Positions 12,913 through 24,447 of a DNA stretch of 53,185 bases are shown in pieces. The notes below the pieces were generated by a model, which was not told the origin of the DNA, did no database searches, and worked only from the letters and a program-made list of their open reading frames with translations. The stretch is from contig JALCHN010000010.1 in assembly GCA_022644775.1 (NCBI GenBank), forward strand, positions 1 to 53,185, written 5' to 3'. The DNA is from Eggerthellaceae bacterium. Its GTDB lineage: Bacteria > Actinomycetota > Coriobacteriia > Coriobacteriales > Eggerthellaceae. Both the position numbers and the translations under genes were made by a program. Each line of letters starts with the position of its first letter. Positions within the stretch are counted from its first letter, which is position 1.

Positions 12913-13746
12913 CTAGCGCGAGCCGGCGCCCTCCGCGCCCGCCCGCCCCGGCGTCCCGTAGTACTCCACGGGGTCTTCCACCCCATTGGCCCGGAAGGCC
13001 GCGATGCGGTCGCGGCAGGTCGCGCACGTTCCGCAGGGCGCATCGCCGCCCTCGTAGCAGCTCCACGTGAGCTCGTAGGGAACGCCCAGCTCGAGCCCGC
13101 GCTTCACCACGCCGGCCTTGTTCTCGTCGACGAACGGCGCCCGAAGGCGCACGCGCCCATAGGTCCCGATCTCGATCGCCGCCCCCATATGGTCGGTGAA
13201 CTCCGGCGAGCAATCGGGGTAGGCGTCGCCCGCCGCGTCGTCGGCATGCGCGCCCAGAAAGACCTCGGTCACGTCGTCGGGGTAGATCGACATCGCGAGC
13301 GCCGCGACCGCCGACAGCATGAGCCCGTTGCGGAAGGGCACATAGGTCGACACCGGCCCCTCCCCGTCTTCGGCGATCTGCTCGGCGTACGACTCGTGCT
13401 TGACGTCCTGGCTGCTGCCGGCCATCAGCGCGCTGTTGGAATCCTTCAGGATTTCGGAAAGGTCGAGCACGCGATGCGCCACGCCGTAATAGCGCGCCAC
13501 CGCGTCGGCGGCCTCGAGCTCGCGGCGATGCTTCTGCCCGTAGAAGACGCTCACCGTGGTCACGTTTTCGGCGCCCAGCTCGTCGACGGCCACCGCCAGG
13601 CAGGTCGTCGAATCCACGCCGCCGCTCGAAAGCACCACGGCCTTGGTCGCCGGCCGCTGCCCGGTCACGGCCGCTTCCCGCGCCCGTTCTTCCGCCTCTT
13701 CGGCCCGCGTCACCGCGACCGCGTCATGCAGGCTGTTCCAGCTCAT
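12913..13746 (-). CDS. queC: 7-cyano-7-deazaguanine synthase QueC
   Basis: A 277-residue ATP-dependent enzyme converting CDG to preQ0. The PP-loop SGGVDS lies at about residues 41-46, and the zinc site is a C-terminal C-x7-CGTCATC cluster ([15 protein letters not shown]). About 35 N-terminal residues precede the usual family start. ATG 13746 overlaps the queF TGA by four bases (ATGA type), so the two genes are translationally coupled. Third-codon GC is very high, like its neighbours. Downstream there is a GC palindrome but no convincing terminator. Confidence 0.95.
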
Positions 13747-14255
13747 CGCGCACCGTCCCCGCTGTCGAGGTCGGAAAGCTGCGCGAACATGCGCTGGGCG
13801 GCCACCTCGCCGTAGCCGAACTTCGGATTTGCCCAGTTGGCGAAGGGGTAGATCGAAATGCCCCCGCGCGGGTAGAACATGCCGCGCACCTCGATGTACT
13901 TGGGGTCCATGAGCGCAACCAGGTCCTTCATGATCACGTTGGTCACGTCTTCGTGGAAGTCGCCGTGGTTGCGGAAGCTGAACAGGTAGAGCTTGAGGCT
14001 CTTGCTTTCCACCATGCGGACGTGGGGAATGTAGTTGATGTAGAGGGTGGCGAAGTCGGGCTGGCCGGTAATCGGGCACAGCGTGGTGAATTCGGGGCAG
14101 CGGAACGTGACCATGTAGTCGTGGTCCTGATGCTTGTTCTCGAACGTTTCAAGCAGGCTGGGATCGTAGTCGGCGGCGTAGCGCGTCCCCTGACTGCCAA
14201 GCTTGGTGAGCCCTTCGGCGGCGCGGTCGCGCCCGCCCTGTTGCGTTTCGGCCAT
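13743..14255 (-). CDS. queF: NADPH-dependent 7-cyano-7-deazaguanine reductase QueF
   Basis: A 170-residue reductase turning preQ0 into preQ1. It shows the catalytic Cys in [13 protein letters not shown] and the specificity motif VESKSLKLY, and is the short unimodular QueF form. ATG 14255 (MAETQQ) follows GGGAAGG at 7 nt; the frame open to 14288 is disregarded. It is first gene of queF-queC. No preQ1 riboswitch is visible upstream, only a TATAGT -10 box at 14295. Confidence 0.95.
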
Positions 14256-14294
14256 GTGCGTACCTTCCCTTCGGGTGCCGTGTTGCAACCGCCC

Positions 14295-14396: not shown

Positions 14397-14424
14397 TTGC
14401 ATATCCTCCCGCAACGCATATAAT
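14397..14424 (+). promoter_or_regulatory. Promoter of the lysine-riboswitch transcript
   Basis: TTGCAT (14397-14402), 16-nt spacer, TATAAT (14419-14424). The predicted start near 14431 lies just upstream of the aptamer. Confidence 0.8.
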
Positions 14425-14446
14425 CTTCGCACGGTATACACAGCCA

Positions 14447-14600
14447 TGATAGAGGCGCGGCCCCCATCAGTATCCCGCGTGCAACCCAGGGAAGGGGCGC
14501 GGGCGAAAGGGGCGGGCCGCCGAAGGGCGAAGGCTCCATCCTTCGCGCCTGGGGCGCAGCAGAACATGCTGCGCACTGTCGCTTTCGCGGAGAGCTATCA
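14447..14600 (+). promoter_or_regulatory. Lysine riboswitch (L-box)
   Basis: The stretch carries the conserved L-box blocks in order: GATAGAGG (14448), AGTA, the GCCGAAG block, CCTGG, CTGTC and the closing GGAGAGCTATC ending at 14599. P1 is GATAG paired with CTATC. Between the aptamer and the GTG start (14601-14672) CTCCG at about 14622 can pair with the CGGAG of the aptamer 3' strand, and GGGTCATG/CATGGCCC forms a hairpin before the ribosome site, so control of translation or termination is plausible. Known L-boxes turn genes off when lysine is plentiful. Confidence 0.95.
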
Positions 14601-14672
14601 CGACCGGTGCGGGCGCAAAGCTCCGAGCGGGTCATGGTAATCATGGCCCGGACCTCGACAAAGGAGCAATCT

Positions 14673-16256
14673 GTGGAATTCATCGGCACCTTCTGGTCGC
14701 TCGTGCCGCCCATCGTGGCGATCGTGCTCGCGCTGATCACCAAGGAAACCTACACCTCGCTGTTCATCGGCATCCTGGTGGGCGCCCTGCTGCTCGCCGG
14801 CGGCGACCCGATCAACACCCTCAACTACATCATCTCCGGCCAGATCGGCGACGGCGACGACGCGATGCCCGTGGGCTTCATCAACGCGATCTCCGATTCG
14901 TCCAACGCCGGCATCTTCGTCTTCCTCATCATCCTGGGCATCATGGTCGCCGTGATCAACAAGGCCGGCGGGTCGGCCGCCTTCGGCCGCTGGGCCGCCA
15001 CCCACATCAAGAGCCGCCGCGGCGCCATGCTCGCCACCTTCCTGTTGGGGTGCCTCATCTTCATCGACGACTACTTCAACTGCCTCACCGTGGGCGCCGT
15101 GATGCGCCCGATCACCGACGAGCAGAAGGTCTCGCGCGCCAAGCTCTCCTACCTGATCGACGCCACGGCCGCGCCCGTCTGCATCATCGCCCCGGTATCG
15201 AGCTGGGCGGCCGCCGTGTCGGCCACCGCCGCCGACCTCGACAACGGCATGTCGGGCATCCAGCTGTTCATCTCCACGATTCCCTACAACTTCTATTCGC
15301 TGCTCACGATCACCTTCATCATCGCGATCTGCTTCATGGGCTTCGACTACGGTCCCATGGCCAAGGCCGAATTCGAGGCCTACCGCAACGGTAACCTGGG
15401 CAACCTCACCGACGAGGCCCGCATGGAAAACGACCGCGCCCGCCTGTGGGACATGGTCCTGCCCATCATCATGCTCATCGTCTTCTGCGTGATCGGCATG
15501 CTCTACGTGGGCGGCTTCTGGGACCCTGAAGCCGAAGGCTTCGGCGACGCGTCCCTCGCCTTCGGCGACACCGACGCATCGGTGGGCCTGCCCTGGGGTT
15601 CGCTCGTGGCGCTCATCCTGTCCTTCCTCTACCTGCTCGCCCGTCGCACGATCACCTTCAAGGACGCCACCGATTGCATCGTCACCGGCTTCCGCGCGAT
15701 GGTGCCCGCCATGCTGATCCTCACCTTCGCCCTCACGCTCAAGCTCGCCACCAACGCCCTGGGCGCCGACGTCTACGTCGCCGGCCTCATGCAGAACGCC
15801 GCCGCCGGCCTGTTCAACTTCCTGCCGGCTATCATCTACCTGGTGGCCCTGGGCCTGGCCTTCGCCACGGGCACGAGCTGGGGCACCTTCGGCATCCTGA
15901 TTCCCATCGTCCTGCCGATCTTCGCCAACGACCCCACCCTGCTCACGATCGGCATCGCTGCCTGCCTGGCGGGCGCCGTCAACGGCGACCACTGCTCGCC
16001 GATTTCCGACACGACGATCATGGCCTCGGCCGGTTCCGACATCCACCACGTCGACCACGTGAGCACCCAGCTGCCCTACTCGCTCACCGTGGGCGCCATT
16101 TCCTGCGCGATGTTCCTCATCGCGGGCTTCGTGCAGAACTGGGTCATCTGCCTGCCGGTGGGCATCGCGCTCACGATCGGCACCCTGTTCATCCTGCGCG
16201 CCACCGTGGGCAAGAAGTCCTACGAGGACTTGAAGGCCTACGAGGCCGGCAAGTAG
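14673..16256 (+). CDS. NhaC-family transporter under lysine control (candidate lysine transporter)
   Basis: A 527-residue membrane protein with about 12 helices of the NhaC/ion-transporter superfamily: FIDDYFNCLTVGAVMRPITD, ATAAPVCIIAPVSSWAA, FATGTSWGTFGI and NGDHCSPISDTTIMAS are its family blocks. Sequence alone would suggest Na+/H+ antiport. The lysine riboswitch directly upstream argues for lysine transport: L-box-linked NhaC-type proteins were proposed as lysine transporters (called LysW in comparative work by Rodionov and colleagues). GTG 14673 is chosen because AAAGGAG lies 6 nt upstream; the ATG at 14643 lacks such a site. It is a single-gene unit ending in a strong terminator. Confidence 0.9.
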   Translation: MEFIGTFWSLVPPIVAIVLALITKETYTSLFIGILVGALLLAGGDPINTLNYIISGQIGDGDDAMPVGFINAISDSSNAGIFVFLIILGIMVAVINKAGGSAAFGRWAATHIKSRRGAMLATFLLGCLIFIDDYFNCLTVGAVMRPITDEQKVSRAKLSYLIDATAAPVCIIAPVSSWAAAVSATAADLDNGMSGIQLFISTIPYNFYSLLTITFIIAICFMGFDYGPMAKAEFEAYRNGNLGNLTDEARMENDRARLWDMVLPIIMLIVFCVIGMLYVGGFWDPEAEGFGDASLAFGDTDASVGLPWGSLVALILSFLYLLARRTITFKDATDCIVTGFRAMVPAMLILTFALTLKLATNALGADVYVAGLMQNAAAGLFNFLPAIIYLVALGLAFATGTSWGTFGILIPIVLPIFANDPTLLTIGIAACLAGAVNGDHCSPISDTTIMASAGSDIHHVDHVSTQLPYSLTVGAISCAMFLIAGFVQNWVICLPVGIALTIGTLFILRATVGKKSYEDLKAYEAGK

Positions 16257-16285
16257 CGCCGCCGCTCGCATCCGTCGCCCACGCA

Positions 16286-16316
16286 AGCGCTCCCGCACTC
16301 CGCGGGAGCGCTTTTT
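16286..16316 (+). terminator. Rho-independent terminator of the NhaC-family gene
   Basis: An 11-bp perfect stem (16286-16296 with 16302-16312), 5-nt loop and five T residues. Confidence 0.95.
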
Positions 16317-16374
16317 CGTGCCCAAACTATTTCATTGCAGCCAGGTCGAAGGGAAAAACGCAGGGAATCCCGAA

Positions 16375-17010
16375 CGCACCCTGACCATCGTCAACGAGTC
16401 GAATTCCAGCGCCCAGCGCATCGACGACGCCCTCGCCGCCCTGCGCGAGGGCGAGCCCCAGGGCACGGTCCCCGTCATCGCAGACGACGACTTCCACGAC
16501 CTCTACAAGCGCATCGACCGCGCCATGTACCGCTCCAAGCACCTGGGCGGCGACCGCGTCACCGTCTATTCCGACGCCCACCGCACCGAAATCAGCGCGC
16601 CCGAATCGGGCCACTGCTTCAGCCTGCAGGAGCGCTCGGCCTACGAATCGTCTAAGTTTCCCCTGCTCATGTCTAGGCGCTCGCCCGCTGGAAGGACCCG
16701 ACGCGCGGGGTGCTCTCACCGGCCGTCTTCGTGCCCGTGCTCGAAGACCGTCATCTCATCTGGGAGCTCGACCGGCACGTTCTGCGTCAAGCTTGCGCCT
16801 TCCAAGGAGCGCGCAAACGCCGCGGCCTCACCTACGTGCCCCGTTCGGTGAACCTGTCGCGCAGCGACTTTTCGGCGCCCGACCTGCACGAGACGATTTC
16901 CCAGGCCATCGCCGAAAACGGCCTTGCGCCCGCCGAGCTCGTGGCGAAGCTCGATGCCGAGGGGCTTGCCCCCATCACGCCCGGACAGAACGGCTTCTTC
17001 ACGGCGACCG
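16375..17010 (+). pseudogene. Broken GGDEF-EAL (cyclic-di-GMP) gene
   Basis: Two frames carry pieces of one gene. The first (to about 16665) ends in the last helix of a GGDEF domain, DLYKRIDRAMYRSKHLGGDR VTVYS. The second, from 16677, reads ALARWKDPTRGVLSPAVF, then VPVLEDRHLIWELDRHVL and VPRSVNLSRSDF, which is the start of an EAL phosphodiesterase domain. The codon before A-L, where EAL has its Glu, is TAG (16674-16676). The GG[DE]EF motif, the linker and most of the EAL domain are gone. No intact gene is present from 16317 to 17125. Confidence 0.8.
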
Positions 17011-19542: not shown

Positions 19543-19648
19543 CTGACAAATCGTCAGACAATTTGTCAGGTTTTGCCCCCGCGTCGCCTGAACCTGACCT
19601 GACAAATCGTCAAACCTGACCTGACAAATCGTCAGACTATTTGTCAGG
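19543..19648. repeat. Left REP cluster of the transposase unit
   Basis: CTGACAAAT/ATTTGTCAG palindromes occur at 19543-19569 and 19620-19648, with a perfect tandem duplication of 22 nt (19591-19612 and 19613-19634) between. The second palindrome contains the stop codon of the transposase gene. Confidence 0.9.
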
Positions 19649-20401
19649 TTTTACCGATTGGATTATTCCCCTGCTGATTCCCGTGAGACGCTCGATTTGG
19701 CGAACGGACAGGCCAGCAGACAACAACAGCCCGAGCAGGCTATTGCGTTCCCGACGGTCAAGCGTTTTCAGCTCATTGAGATTGCGCCCCTCGAGAACCT
19801 TCTCCGCAATTTCAAGAGCCACCCCATCGCGCATCGGGCGCGTCGGCGAACGCAGGGCGTCGGCATCCATGCACTGTCGCTCCCCCGCATGCGCCCTATG
19901 GAACGCGACAAACGCTTTCTCGCTGCCAAACGCGCCTAGGACGAGCTCGGTCGAGCATATTCGACGCGCATCGGCGCGACCGGCATATTCGCCGTAGCTG
20001 CTCCAGCGGTACTCATCCTGCTTGGCGATTCCGGCTTTTTCCGGATTGAAATGGATGTAGCTCGCAATGACGAGAAAGTAGGCCTCGTCATCTACCGGTT
20101 CGCTCTTGAACCGATCTTGGAACAAGCGGCCCGTTCGTTCGTAATGGGCGTTGAACGCACGCGCGTAGGCGCCGCACACGCGCTGCATGCAGAGGGAGAT
20201 TTGGCTCATAGGCGCGCGAAGCAGCAGATGGACATGATTGCCCATAAGGCACCATGCAAGGATTTCCACGGCCGAAGTCGCCGCCGAAGAAACGAGAAGA
20301 TCGAGAAAGCGCTCGCGATCTTCGTCAGCTTCGAATATCAGCTGTCGTCCAACCCCACGACAAACGACGTGGTAGATATCGCTCTCGCACTGCTTCCGCA
20401 T
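19637..20401 (-). CDS. REP-associated tyrosine transposase (IS200/Y1 family)
   Basis: A 254-residue single-strand DNA transposase. The N-terminal strand is DIYHVVCRGVGRQLIFE, the HUH metal site is GNHVHLLL, and the tyrosine region is VIASYIHFNPEKAG, as in TnpA-REP proteins. A C-terminal helix-turn-helix follows (LLSAGLSVRQIERLTGISRG). ATG 20401 (MRKQCES) matches the family start; the 30 upstream residues are unlike it. The ribosome site is weak (GGTGG). The last codons, KPDK-stop, are encoded by the left REP itself. The key residues appear present, so it could be active. Confidence 0.9.
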   Translation of the reverse strand: MRKQCESDIYHVVCRGVGRQLIFEADEDRERFLDLLVSSAATSAVEILAWCLMGNHVHLLLRAPMSQISLCMQRVCGAYARAFNAHYERTGRLFQDRFKSEPVDDEAYFLVIASYIHFNPEKAGIAKQDEYRWSSYGEYAGRADARRICSTELVLGAFGSEKAFVAFHRAHAGERQCMDADALRSPTRPMRDGVALEIAEKVLEGRNLNELKTLDRRERNSLLGLLLSAGLSVRQIERLTGISRGIIQSVKPDK

Positions 20402-20501
20402 GCTCGCACCACCCGCCCCCTTGCACCGAATGGCCGCCGATTTCCGACCATAGTAGCAGGGCCCAGCGATGGGCGCCGAGGGCGTTTCCATCTTGAAAAC
20501 C

Positions 20502-20609: not shown

Positions 20610-21845
20610 TTATTCGTAGCGCTCGTCGAAGACGCGCTTGGTCTTCTTCTCGCTGCGCGGCAGCACGCCCAGCTCGACCACCTTCACGAGCGGCGTGAAC
20701 CCGATGCGGCTCTTCACCTCATGCGCCACGCGGTCGGCCACGTCGAGGAAGTCGTACTCGCCGGTGGTTTCCACGTAGATGCGCATCGTGTCGCGGCCTT
20801 CCAGATGCGAAATGTGAATCTGGTACTCGCTCGACAGCTCGGGGAAGGTCTGCAGCACCTCTTCGATCTGCTTGGGGAAGACGTTGACGCCCTTGATCTT
20901 CATCATGTCGTCGGAACGGCCCACCAGCGCGTCGATGCGCGGGAAACGGCTGCCGCAAGCGCACTCCCCCGGCACGATCCGCGAGATGTCGTGGGTGCGG
21001 AAGCGGATGAGCGGCGCGCCCTCCTTGCGAAGGGTCGTGATGCAGATCTCGCCGTATTCGCCGTCGGGCACGGGCTTAAGGGTTTCGGGATCGAGAATCT
21101 CCAGGTAGATGAAGTCGTCCCAGTAGTGCATGCCGCAGTCGTAGTCGCAGCTGATGCCGATGCCCGGGCCGTAGATTTCGGTGAGGCCGTAGATGTCGTA
21201 GATCTGAATGCCCAGCTCGTTCTTGATGCGACTGCGCATCTTCTCGCCCCAGCGCTCGCTGCCGATGATGCCCTTGCGCAGCGCCAGCTGGTCGCGAATT
21301 CCGCGCTTTTCGATCTCCTCGGCGAGCAGCAGGGCGTACGACGACGTGGCGCACAGCACGGTCGGCTGCATGTCCTCCATGAACTTCAGCTGCTTTTCGG
21401 TGTTGCCCGGGCCCATGGGAACGGCCATGGCGCCGAGCTTTTCCACGCCCGCCTGAAAGCCGATGCCCGCGGTCCACAGGCCGTAGCCCGTGGTGATCTG
21501 CACGCGGTCGCGCGGAGTCACGCCTGCCGTGGCGAAGCAGCGCGCGAACATGGTCGCCCAATCGTCGACGTCTCGCTGGGTGTAGGGGACGATGACCGGC
21601 GTGCCCGTCGTGCCCGACGAGCTGTGGATGCGCACGATCTTGTCTTCGGGCACCGCCGAAAGCCCCAGCGGATAGGCCTCGCGCAAATCGGCTTTCTCGG
21701 TGAAGGGAAGCTGCTCGAAATCGGCCTGGGTGCGCACGTCGGCCAGGTCGACGTCGGCGTACTTCTTGGCGTAGAAGAGCGAACGGCCCTTCAGGGTCTT
21801 GAACTGCTCGCGAATCGCCGCGAGCTGCTCGGGTTTCATTTCCAT
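20610..21845 (-). CDS. paaK: Phenylacetate-CoA ligase family enzyme
   Basis: A 411-residue AMP-forming ligase joining phenylacetate or a related aryl acid to CoA. It shows the phosphate-binding SSGTTGTPVIVPYT, the YGLTEIYGPG acyl-binding motif and the C-terminal VGRSDDMMKIKGVNVFP hinge. ATG 21845 is used (MEMKPEQ), with a GGGGA ribosome site; the frame open to 21899 is ignored. It is the last gene after iorB, 54 nt downstream, and ends directly on the REP cluster. With IorAB it should form an aryl-pyruvate to aryl-acetate or aryl-acetyl-CoA module. Confidence 0.93.
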   Translation of the reverse strand: MEMKPEQLAAIREQFKTLKGRSLFYAKKYADVDLADVRTQADFEQLPFTEKADLREAYPLGLSAVPEDKIVRIHSSSGTTGTPVIVPYTQRDVDDWATMFARCFATAGVTPRDRVQITTGYGLWTAGIGFQAGVEKLGAMAVPMGPGNTEKQLKFMEDMQPTVLCATSSYALLLAEEIEKRGIRDQLALRKGIIGSERWGEKMRSRIKNELGIQIYDIYGLTEIYGPGIGISCDYDCGMHYWDDFIYLEILDPETLKPVPDGEYGEICITTLRKEGAPLIRFRTHDISRIVPGECACGSRFPRIDALVGRSDDMMKIKGVNVFPKQIEEVLQTFPELSSEYQIHISHLEGRDTMRIYVETTGEYDFLDVADRVAHEVKSRIGFTPLVKVVELGVLPRSEKKTKRVFDERYE

Positions 21846-21899
21846 GGGTATCCCCGCTTTCCACAGCGGCCGCGTCGCTGAAACGGCGCGGCCGCCCAT

Positions 21900-22526
21900 C
21901 TAGTTGACTGAAGGCGCGCCGACGCGCGCGATGGCCGTGTCGATCGCCGCACGGTTGAGCGCGACGAAGGCGGGCTTCACACAGGCCTCCATCGCGCGCA
22001 CGAGCTCGTCGGTGCCGATGGCACCGCGCAGGCCAAACGAGGTCCCGTTCGAAGCGGCCACGGCGGAAGCAAGCATCACGAGGTTGGCCACCTTGCGGCT
22101 GCCCACCTCCTCGCAGATGGCGGCTTCGTCGACGGCCAAGAAGTGCGGCGCCGCGCCTTCCAGATACGCGAGCAGCGGCTCCGCCTCGTACGGCTCGCCC
22201 GAAAGGGTGGTCTCCACCGAGGGAATGGCCGTACGGGCGCACACGAGCAGGCCGTCGGGCGCCAGGTAGGGCAAGGCGCGCACCGCTTCGCCCGGCTCGA
22301 GCGCGACGATGCAGTCGGCCGTGCCGCGCGCGATGAGCGGGGCGTGCACCTCTTCGCCCGCGTCGCCCATGCGCACGTGCGAGGTCACGTTGCCGCCGCG
22401 CTGGGCCATGCCGATCGTTTCGGCCGTGCGGACCTTCCAACCGCGCGCCTGGGCCGCGGCAGCGAGGATCTTGGCGGCGAGCACCGACCCCTGCCCGCCG
22501 ATGCCGGCGATAAGAACGTTGAGCAT
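21900..22526 (-). CDS. iorB: Indolepyruvate oxidoreductase subunit beta
   Basis: A 208-residue small subunit of the oxygen-sensitive enzyme that oxidatively decarboxylates aryl-pyruvates to aryl-acetyl-CoA with ferredoxin. The gamma-type domain is recognised from NVLIAGIGGQGSVLAAKIL, ETIGMAQRGGNVTSHVR and DEAAICEEVGSRKVANLVML. ATG 22526 begins one base after the iorA stop, so the genes are coupled. Confidence 0.94.
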   Translation of the reverse strand: MLNVLIAGIGGQGSVLAAKILAAAAQARGWKVRTAETIGMAQRGGNVTSHVRMGDAGEEVHAPLIARGTADCIVALEPGEAVRALPYLAPDGLLVCARTAIPSVETTLSGEPYEAEPLLAYLEGAAPHFLAVDEAAICEEVGSRKVANLVMLASAVAASNGTSFGLRGAIGTDELVRAMEACVKPAFVALNRAAIDTAIARVGAPSVN

Positions 22527-22527
22527 C

Positions 22528-24447
22528 CTACTCACCTGCCTTACCAGCGAACGGAACGCGCCCTTCGGTGCGCACCGCCGCCGAAATCGCACCGTGCTGG
22601 CACACATCGACGCACAGCCCGCAGCCGTAACAGGTAGCGGCATCGACGATCATCTTCGAACCGTCGGCGGACATGGTCATGGCCGGGCAGCCGATCGCCT
22701 CCACGCACACGCGGCAGCCCACGCAGGCGTCGTCGTCGACCACGGCGCGCGGCTCGGGGCGGACGATCTGGGTGCAGGGCGAGCGGAAGATGAGCGCCGA
22801 GGGCCCTTCGAAGTCGACGGCACGCCTAGCCGCCGCCAGGCTCTCCTTCAGATAGAGGGGGTTGGCGTGCTCGATGCAGGTCACGCCGAGCCCTTCGAGC
22901 ACCGCCTCGATGCGGATGGGATCCGACACGGGGCCCATGAGCGTGCGCCCGATGCCCGGGTGGGGCTGGCCGCCCGTCATGGCCGTGGTCGAGTTGTCGA
23001 GCACGACGATCGTGATGTCGTGCTGGTTGTAAACCGCGTTGGCCACGCCGGTCATGCCGCTCGCGAAGAAGGTCGAGTCGCCGATGAAGGCGACCGCCTT
23101 GGTGCCCGGTTCGGCCACGGCGACGCCTTGCGCCATCGTGATGCCGGCGCCCATGCACAGACAGGTGTCGACCGCCTCGAGCGGCTTGGCGTTGCCCAGC
23201 GTGTAGCAGCCGATATCGCCGCAGAGCACGTTCTTCTTGCCGCGCAGGGCGCGCTTGACCGCGTAGAAGGCCCCGCGGTGGGGGCAGCCGGCGCAGAGCA
23301 CGGGCGGGCGGGCGGGCGCCTGGGGCGCTGCAGGGTCGGGTGCGGGCTCTTCGGGCAGCGCGTCGGTGACGCCCAGGAAGCGGGCGATGCGACGGGCGCA
23401 GTCTTCCACCGAATTCTCGCCGCGGGCAAGCGTCGACCCGTCGAGCTTGCCGTGCACGCGGTAAGACAGCTTGTCGCGGCCCGCCAGCATGAGCAGGTCG
23501 TCTTCGATCACGTGGTCGAGCTCTTCGAAGACGAGGACGTCGGTCTTGCCGGCCGCGAATGCGCGGGCCCGGCGCACCGGGAAGGGGAAGGGGGTCCCCA
23601 CCTGCAAAAAATCGAACGCGGGCAGCTGGGCGCCGCGGGCGATGAGCATCTCGATCGCCTCGCGCGCATAGGCGCCGCTCACGCCGCCGCAAACGATGCC
23701 GAGCGGAGCCGCTCCCGCGTCGGCGGGCGCGCATTCCTCGCCCGCATAGGCGTAAAGGGGATTGAAGGAGCCGGCGGCTTCCTCGCTCGCGATTTCGTGC
23801 AGGCGGTCGTTGATCTCGCCGTGGGCCGCGTACGACCGGCGCGGAAAGATGACCCACTTGGGGTCCTTTTCGAAGCCGCCTTCGGGCACAGGACGCGCGT
23901 GGGTTTCGCTGGGCACGTCGAAGAAGGTGCTCGCGTGGTTCACGCGCGTGGTGGGCCGCACAATGACCGGCGTATGCCACGTTTCGGATACCTCGAAGGC
24001 GTGCCGCATCATGTCGGCGCCCGATTCGGGGTTCCACGGGTCGAGCACGGGCACTTTGGCGAAGTTGGCGAAGCGGCGCGTGTCCTGCTCGGTCTGGCTG
24101 GAAATGGGGCCCGGGTCGTCGGCCACGAAGAGCACGAGCCCGCCTCGCACGCCCACGTAATTGGCAGACAGCAGGGCGTCGGCGGCCACGTTCAAGCCCA
24201 TCTGCTTGCAGGTGAACAGGCCGCGCGCGCCGCTGGCGGATGCGCCCACCAAAAGCTCGAGAGCGGCCTTTTCGTTATCGGACCATTCCACGTACACGTC
24301 GTGGGCCACGCCCGCCGCATGCAGTTTGGCCACCGTTTCGACCAGCTCGCTCGAGGGGGTGCCCGGGTAGCCGGCCACCACGTTCACGCCCGCTTCGAGA
24401 GCAGCCCAGGCGAAGGCCTCGTTGCCCATGAGCAGGGTGCTACGCAT
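22528..24447 (-). CDS. iorA: Indolepyruvate oxidoreductase subunit alpha
   Basis: A 639-residue large subunit binding TPP and two [4Fe-4S] clusters. The N-terminal pyrimidine domain has GYPGTPSSELVE; the TPP domain has CAGCPHRG, GDIGCYTLG and IGDSTFFASG with NSTTAMTGGQPHPG; the C-terminal ferredoxin domain has CVGCRVCVEAIGCP and CYGCGLCVDVCQ. The first cluster has an IGCP variant with an extra residue before the last Cys. Its start overlaps the end of purE by 8 nt. Substrates are likely indole-, phenyl- or hydroxyphenyl-pyruvate. Confidence 0.96.
   Translation of the reverse strand: MRSTLLMGNEAFAWAALEAGVNVVAGYPGTPSSELVETVAKLHAAGVAHDVYVEWSDNEKAALELLVGASASGARGLFTCKQMGLNVAADALLSANYVGVRGGLVLFVADDPGPISSQTEQDTRRFANFAKVPVLDPWNPESGADMMRHAFEVSETWHTPVIVRPTTRVNHASTFFDVPSETHARPVPEGGFEKDPKWVIFPRRSYAAHGEINDRLHEIASEEAAGSFNPLYAYAGEECAPADAGAAPLGIVCGGVSGAYAREAIEMLIARGAQLPAFDFLQVGTPFPFPVRRARAFAAGKTDVLVFEELDHVIEDDLLMLAGRDKLSYRVHGKLDGSTLARGENSVEDCARRIARFLGVTDALPEEPAPDPAAPQAPARPPVLCAGCPHRGAFYAVKRALRGKKNVLCGDIGCYTLGNAKPLEAVDTCLCMGAGITMAQGVAVAEPGTKAVAFIGDSTFFASGMTGVANAVYNQHDITIVVLDNSTTAMTGGQPHPGIGRTLMGPVSDPIRIEAVLEGLGVTCIEHANPLYLKESLAAARRAVDFEGPSALIFRSPCTQIVRPEPRAVVDDDACVGCRVCVEAIGCPAMTMSADGSKMIVDAATCYGCGLCVDVCQHGAISAAVRTEGRVPFAGKAGE

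What the first reader, a model, noticed from the sequence alone, without database searches (positions are those of the whole stretch)
14397..16256. Lysine riboswitch drives an NhaC-family transporter
All conserved L-box blocks (GATAGAGG, AGTA, GCCGAAG, CTGG, CTGTC, GGAGAGCTATC) follow a good promoter directly upstream of a gene that would be called a Na+/H+ antiporter. The riboswitch points to lysine as substrate, as in LysW-type proteins proposed from comparative genomics. Interplay of CTCCG at about 14622 with the aptamer 3' strand suggests the switching mechanism.
Basis: partly seen in the sequence, partly recalled or inferred. Interest (0 to 1): 0.75.

Follow-up and report, generated by a model that had tools for sequence, protein, structure and literature searches.

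The report
Lysine riboswitch controlling an NhaC-family transporter
A bacterium of the family Eggerthellaceae has a genuine lysine-sensing RNA switch in front of a transporter gene that would be annotated as a sodium/proton antiporter but most likely imports lysine; the arrangement is already known, and what is added here is its spread in this family and a better-supported switching model.

Summary
Rfam's lysine aptamer RF00168 matches window 14442-14605 (+) over its full length at 89.1 bits, E 3.9e-22, and it is the only lysine riboswitch in the genome. It lies 67 nt upstream of a 527-residue PF03553 transporter whose likely start is GTG 14673. In 119 Eggerthellaceae genomes all 37 with a lysine riboswitch carry a close orthologue of this gene. 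Of their 44 riboswitches 36 sit directly in front of it and 7 in front of dapA or lysA; none of 72 genomes without the orthologue has one. This supports a lysine transporter, most likely an importer, but transport itself is unproven.

A better-supported model is strand exchange. The P1 3' strand pairs either with the P1 5' strand (lysine bound) or with 14630-14639. In the bound state GCTCC 14620-14624 can cover the Shine-Dalgarno sequence. Six relatives have true terminators at the same place, so this is most likely an OFF switch.

The riboswitch-NhaC pairing ('LysW') is published. This is a new member of a known kind.

The parts
14397..14424 (+). Promoter-like site TTGCAT-16 nt-TATAAT
   Evidence: Direct reading; kept in genus mate G001; not listed by the consensus scanner because the -35 box matches only 3 of 6
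14442..14605 (+). Lysine riboswitch aptamer (RF00168); P1 = 14447-14452 with 14595-14600
   Evidence: cmscan 89.1 bits, E 3.9e-22, full model
14596..14605 (+). P1 3' strand and its extension TATCACGACC, which can leave P1 and pair with 14630-14639 (9 of 10 pairs, one C-A mismatch)
   Evidence: matched versus permuted complementarity across 36 leaders
14620..14624 (+). Anti-Shine-Dalgarno GCTCC, complementary to GGAGC 14663-14667
   Evidence: direct reading; pairing probability 0.67-0.76 when P1 is enforced and 0.00 when the alternative helix is enforced
14628..14650 (+). Expression-platform hairpin CGGGTCATG-GTAAT-CATGGCCCG (9 pairs, no U tract); its 5' arm is the alternative partner of the P1 3' strand and its 3' arm (14640-14647) that of the P1 5' strand (14443-14450)
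   Evidence: relatives have terminators at this place
14660..14666 (+). Shine-Dalgarno sequence AAAGGAG
   Evidence: direct reading, 6 nt before the start codon; similar in relatives
14673..16256 (+). NhaC-superfamily (LysW-type) transporter, 527 aa, GTG start
   Evidence: PF03553 E 1.8e-43; orthologues 60-96% identical downstream of lysine riboswitches
16285..16316 (+). Probable intrinsic terminator after the gene (AAGCGCTCCCGC-ACTCC-GCGGGAGCGCTT then TTT), so the gene appears to be transcribed alone
   Evidence: direct reading; not listed by the scanner's T-run rule

Best explanation
A lysine-responsive OFF riboswitch controls a single gene for a secondary transporter of the NhaC superfamily (LysW type), which most likely imports lysine, coupled to Na+ or H+. 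Shown here: the aptamer, the linkage, and sequence complementarity for two exclusive folds. Inferred: with little lysine, the hairpin arms at 14628-14650 capture the two P1 strands (14596-14605 with 14630-14639; 14443-14450 with 14640-14647), the anti-Shine-Dalgarno is held inside, and the gene is translated. With lysine, P1 is locked, the hairpin closes on itself, GCTCC 14620-14624 pairs with the Shine-Dalgarno at 14663-14667, and translation falls. Lysine as substrate and import as direction are inferred from the regulon and from the OFF logic.
For: RF00168 at 89.1 bits; only one in the genome. Linkage in the family: 37 of 119 genomes have RF00168, a close orthologue is in 47, all 37 are among the 47, 36 riboswitches are adjacent to the orthologue, and none of the other 72 genomes has one. 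Seven of the 8 remaining riboswitches in the family precede dapA or lysA; one is cut by a contig end. In 50 further named records, mostly Clostridia, 31 have the riboswitch within 400 nt upstream of the homologue. The separate paralogue clade (15 rows) comes from genomes without RF00168 or lies on contigs without one. Alternative P1 pairing: mean matched score 23.0 against 18.7 permuted, 0 of 20,000 permutations as high; without ligand the model gives 0.88 for the alternative helix and 0.98 for the P1 5' strand with the 3' arm at transcript end 14654. Six of 36 relatives have a terminator whose 5' arm is the alternative partner, which fixes the OFF logic there. One compensatory change in the genus pair at the stem next to the anti-SD (CGAG/CTCG to CGAA/TTCG).
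Against: No transport or binding data. Ten of 47 family genomes with the orthologue show no riboswitch, and 11 orthologues lack one next to the gene, so the gene can work without it. The platform hairpin in the window has no U tract, so OFF logic is carried over from relatives and from the anti-SD. Predicted Shine-Dalgarno accessibility differs little between the two enforced folds (0.54-0.61 against 0.42 with no or 12 nt of coding sequence, reversed at 30 nt). In 6 of 36 leaders the matched complementarity is no better than mismatched. The permutation test does not correct for relatedness.
Confidence: 0.7

Rival explanations
1. The gene is a real Na+/H+ antiporter for pH control, switched on when lysine is low because lysine decarboxylase then cannot consume protons.
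For: The superfamily name and PF03553; this reading is in the literature for Clostridioides difficile (PMC11477304; PMC5584792).
Against: The protein fails the NhaC equivalog model (50.6 bits, cut-off 370). All other lysine riboswitches identified in the family regulate lysine synthesis. NhaC-superfamily members under tyrosine T-boxes suggest amino acid transport in the superfamily (PMC2494555).
Confidence: 0.12
2. The transporter moves lysine outward or exchanges it (lysine/cadaverine, or another basic amino acid), rather than importing it.
For: NCBIfam ArcD (arginine/ornithine antiporter) is a weak hit (42 bits); the elevator fold of the superfamily allows either direction.
Against: An exporter would be expected under an ON switch; terminators in six relatives and the anti-SD indicate OFF. 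ArcD score is far below its cut-off of 650.
Confidence: 0.13
3. The platform works by transcription termination without a U tract (or by Rho), not by hiding the Shine-Dalgarno sequence.
For: The hairpin 14628-14650 occupies the place of true terminators in relatives L004, L010, L014, L023, L029 and L137; P1 exchange is shared.
Against: No U tract follows the hairpin; GCTCC pairs exactly with the Shine-Dalgarno sequence, and in leaders of the window's clade the loop-SD complementarity beats all but 1 of 10,000 permutations.
Confidence: 0.25
4. The aptamer is a degenerate relic without function.
For: P1 is only 6 pairs in the window and the alternative helix has a C-A mismatch.
Against: Full-length match at 89.1 bits, promoter and platform kept in the genus mate.
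Confidence: 0.02

Closest known systems
LysW, the NhaC-superfamily (COG1757) candidate lysine transporter under lysine riboswitches (PMC5584792, citing earlier comparative genomics)
   Same: Lysine riboswitch directly upstream of an NhaC-superfamily gene; proposed lysine transport
   Different: That survey names lysW in Firmicutes, Gamma- and Betaproteobacteria; for Coriobacteriales the text passages read here list only biosynthetic operons. Here it is in Eggerthellaceae (Actinomycetota). No direct sequence comparison with a published LysW could be made.
CD1655 of Clostridioides difficile (lysine riboswitch, 'NhaC like'; PMC11477304)
   Same: Same genetic arrangement; function stated there as unknown
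   Different: Different phylum; sequence not compared here
OFF-type lysine riboswitches of B. subtilis and E. coli lysC (cited in PMC11477304)
   Same: Lysine-bound P1 excludes an alternative helix that otherwise keeps the gene on
   Different: Here the platform hairpin has no U tract and an anti-Shine-Dalgarno element; the target is a transporter
Tyrosine T-box regulated NhaC-family transporters of Firmicutes (PMC2494555)
   Same: Superfamily member under an amino-acid-specific RNA element
   Different: Different RNA element and predicted substrate
MleN (9a59), ArsB (10tp), MtrF/YdaH, VcINDY and other ion-transporter superfamily structures
   Same: Same overall fold (MleN Foldseek E 2.1e-6; ArsB Z 20.9)
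   Different: 9-15% identity; fold does not tell the substrate

Membership tests
Lysine riboswitch (RF00168) | Covariance-model match above the gathering score | tested here: met
   89.1 bits against 30, full length
Lysine riboswitch (RF00168) | Binds lysine | not testable with these tools
   Needs in-line probing or calorimetry
Lysine riboswitch (RF00168) | Expression platform with two exclusive folds | tested here: met
   Alternative P1 helix by complementarity, permutation and folding; computational only
LysW-type transporter | NhaC/Na_H_antiporter superfamily protein | tested here: met
   PF03553 149.4 bits, cut-off 23
LysW-type transporter | Gene directly under a lysine riboswitch, conserved in relatives | tested here: met
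   36 of 44 family riboswitches; 31 of 50 further records
LysW-type transporter | Sequence clade with published LysW proteins | not tested
LysW-type transporter | Transports lysine | not testable with these tools
   No experiment; stated as unknown for the C. difficile gene in PMC11477304
NhaC Na+/H+ antiporter (TIGR00931 equivalog) | Score above the curated cut-off | tested here: not met
   50.6 bits, cut-off 370
Arginine/ornithine antiporter ArcD (NF052307) | Score above the curated cut-off | tested here: not met
   42.3 bits, cut-off 650
Tet(35) (NF000013) | Score above the curated cut-off | tested here: not met
   166 bits, cut-off 750; shared superfamily only

The most novel reading that the evidence does not exclude
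Within one bacterial family the same P1 strand-exchange core has been fitted to different outputs in front of one transporter: true terminators in some lineages, Shine-Dalgarno or start-codon masking in others (the window's genus among them), and loss of the whole switch in others that keep the gene and a promoter.
Probability: 0.4. Interest if true: 0.4.

Novelty: new member of a known kind. Interest (0 to 1): 0.3.

Why it matters
Genes like this are annotated as Na+/H+ antiporters, and as late as 2024 a review calls the function of the riboswitch-linked NhaC unknown. The near-exclusive pairing of lysine riboswitches in Eggerthellaceae with this gene or with dapA/lysA makes lysine transport a specific, easily tested hypothesis, and gives a clade boundary (91 rows against 15 paralogues) for correcting annotation.

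Tried and rejected
Lysine auxotrophy: lysA was not found in this genome, but the genus mate has it next to homoserine dehydrogenase, and no block of that 11.5 kb region is found in this 95%-complete assembly, so a gap cannot be told from a loss; the claim was dropped.

Minimum-energy folding of the platform alone does not separate the two states; enforced folds were needed.

Published LysW or NhaC sequences could not be fetched, so no tree with named references. No solved structure is similar by sequence. The 2003 comparative-genomics paper is not held. Residues special to the riboswitch clade (such as K357, G in paralogues) gave no clear lysine-site argument.

A loose terminator scan of the 80 named loci includes chance hits and mis-anchored leaders and was not used as evidence beyond the family set.

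Full report
Observation. The lysine aptamer is real: RF00168 matches 14442-14605 on the + strand over all 182 model positions, 89.1 bits, E 3.9e-22. It is the only one in the genome. Upstream lies TTGCAT-16 nt-TATAAT (14397-14424), which has a weak -35 box but is kept in the genus mate. Downstream lies a transporter gene, GTG 14673 to 16256, 527 residues, PF03553 at E 1.8e-43. A hairpin with a T run follows the gene (16285-16316, direct reading), and the neighbours queF/queC and a Na+:solute symporter are on the other strand, so the gene appears to stand alone.

What the gene is. It scores far below the curated cut-offs for NhaC (50.6/370), ArcD (42.3/650) and Tet(35) (166/750), so it belongs to the superfamily without being one of these. 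An AlphaFold model (mean pLDDT 82.9, pTM 0.81) has the ion-transporter superfamily fold: MleN is the best Foldseek match (E 2.1e-6), and NaS1, ArsB, NaDC3 and MleN lead by Z 20-22. The fold does not tell the substrate.

Linkage. The window lies in family Eggerthellaceae (named records; lineage). Of 119 family genomes, 37 have RF00168, with 44 places. A close orthologue (E below 1e-100) is in 47. All 37 are among these 47; none of the 72 others has a lysine riboswitch. In 36 cases the riboswitch is directly upstream of the orthologue. Of the other 8 places, 4 precede lysA directly, 3 precede dapA (one of these followed by lysA), and 1 is cut by a contig end. In 50 named records, chiefly Clostridia, 31 have the riboswitch within 400 nt upstream on the same strand (contigs were matched by coordinates because contig numbers do not always agree). 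In the protein tree the 91 rows of this clade are separate from 15 family paralogues without a riboswitch (support 100). Riboswitch loss within the clade is repeated; in several such orthologues a TATAAT box lies about 30-45 nt before the start codon, and a sensitive Rfam search found no lysine aptamer upstream of ten of them. None of these counts is corrected for relatedness.

Substrate. The regulon of lysine riboswitches in this family consists of lysine synthesis (dapA, lysA) and this transporter, which makes lysine the natural substrate. NhaC-superfamily members under tyrosine T-boxes are an independent precedent for amino acid transport in the superfamily (PMC2494555). A 2024 review still calls the function unknown and offers a Na+/H+ antiporter role (PMC11477304). 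Transport is therefore inferred.

Switch. The 3' strand of P1 with its extension, TATCACGACC 14596-14605, is complementary to GGTCATGGTA 14630-14639, the 5' arm of a 9-pair hairpin 14628-14650. The hairpin's 3' arm ATCATGGC 14640-14647 is complementary to GCCATGAT 14443-14450, the 5' side of P1. So the hairpin arms mimic both P1 strands. Without ligand, at transcript end 14654, the model gives 0.88 for the first and 0.98 for the second alternative helix, and P1 is near 0; with 30 nt of coding sequence the two states are nearly equal. The difference, 1.8 to 5.3 kcal/mol against the P1 fold, is of a size that ligand binding could plausibly cover (inference).

Across 36 family leaders the P1 3' strand fits its own downstream region better than those of other leaders (mean 23.0 against 18.7; 0 of 20,000 permutations), with 30 of 36 individually better. 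Within one genus, L026 CATGGCT/AGCCATG is replaced by L028 CATGATC/GATCATG, three compensatory changes. Six leaders (L004, L010, L014, L023, L029, L137) have a true terminator whose 5' arm is this alternative partner, so lysine binding should switch the gene off. Other leaders lack a U tract; several show strong complementarity of the downstream arm with the start codon (L009 CCATGTCCC/GGGACGTGG) or of the loop with the Shine-Dalgarno sequence.

In the window the hairpin has no U tract, but GCTCC 14620-14624 pairs with GGAGC 14663-14667 over the Shine-Dalgarno sequence. This pairing has probability 0.67-0.76 with P1 enforced and 0.00 with the alternative helix enforced. The genus mate keeps it, with one compensatory change next to it (CGAG/CTCG against CGAA/TTCG), although its folding figures are less clear. 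Translation control is thus the most likely mode here; termination remains possible.

Known or new. Lysine riboswitches before NhaC-superfamily genes (lysW) are described in PMC5584792 and for C. difficile. The paper passages read here name lysW for Firmicutes, Gamma- and Betaproteobacteria, and for Coriobacteriales only biosynthetic operons; no held paper joins lysine riboswitch and Eggerthella. This is a new member of a known kind with a taxonomic extension and a refined switching model.

Noticed in passing
G000 whole genome; L163 5166-6782: lysA, and the homoserine dehydrogenase beside it in the genus mate, have no counterpart found in this assembly; gap or real loss could not be decided.
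   Followed up: partly
L114-L117, L121, L122: Orthologues without the riboswitch have a TATAAT box about 30-45 nt before the start codon, as if the riboswitch had been cut out between promoter and gene.
   Followed up: partly
L009, L011, L026, L027, L134: In some relatives the arm that pairs with the P1 3' strand is also complementary to the start codon region, suggesting start-codon masking.
   Followed up: partly
window 16318-16851: Short ORF after the transporter with a stretch that reads like the end of a GGDEF domain (DDDFHDLYKRIDRAMYRSKHLGGDRV) but no Pfam match; possibly a gene remnant.
   Followed up: no
window 19637-20491: IS200-like (Y1_Tnp) transposase gene on the - strand.
   Followed up: no
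window 12913-14288: queF and queC (queuosine synthesis) divergent from the transporter; their reading frames overlap slightly.
   Followed up: no
window 20610-22643: AMP-binding ligase next to a pyruvate/ketoacid ferredoxin oxidoreductase subunit, as in aromatic amino acid breakdown modules.
   Followed up: no
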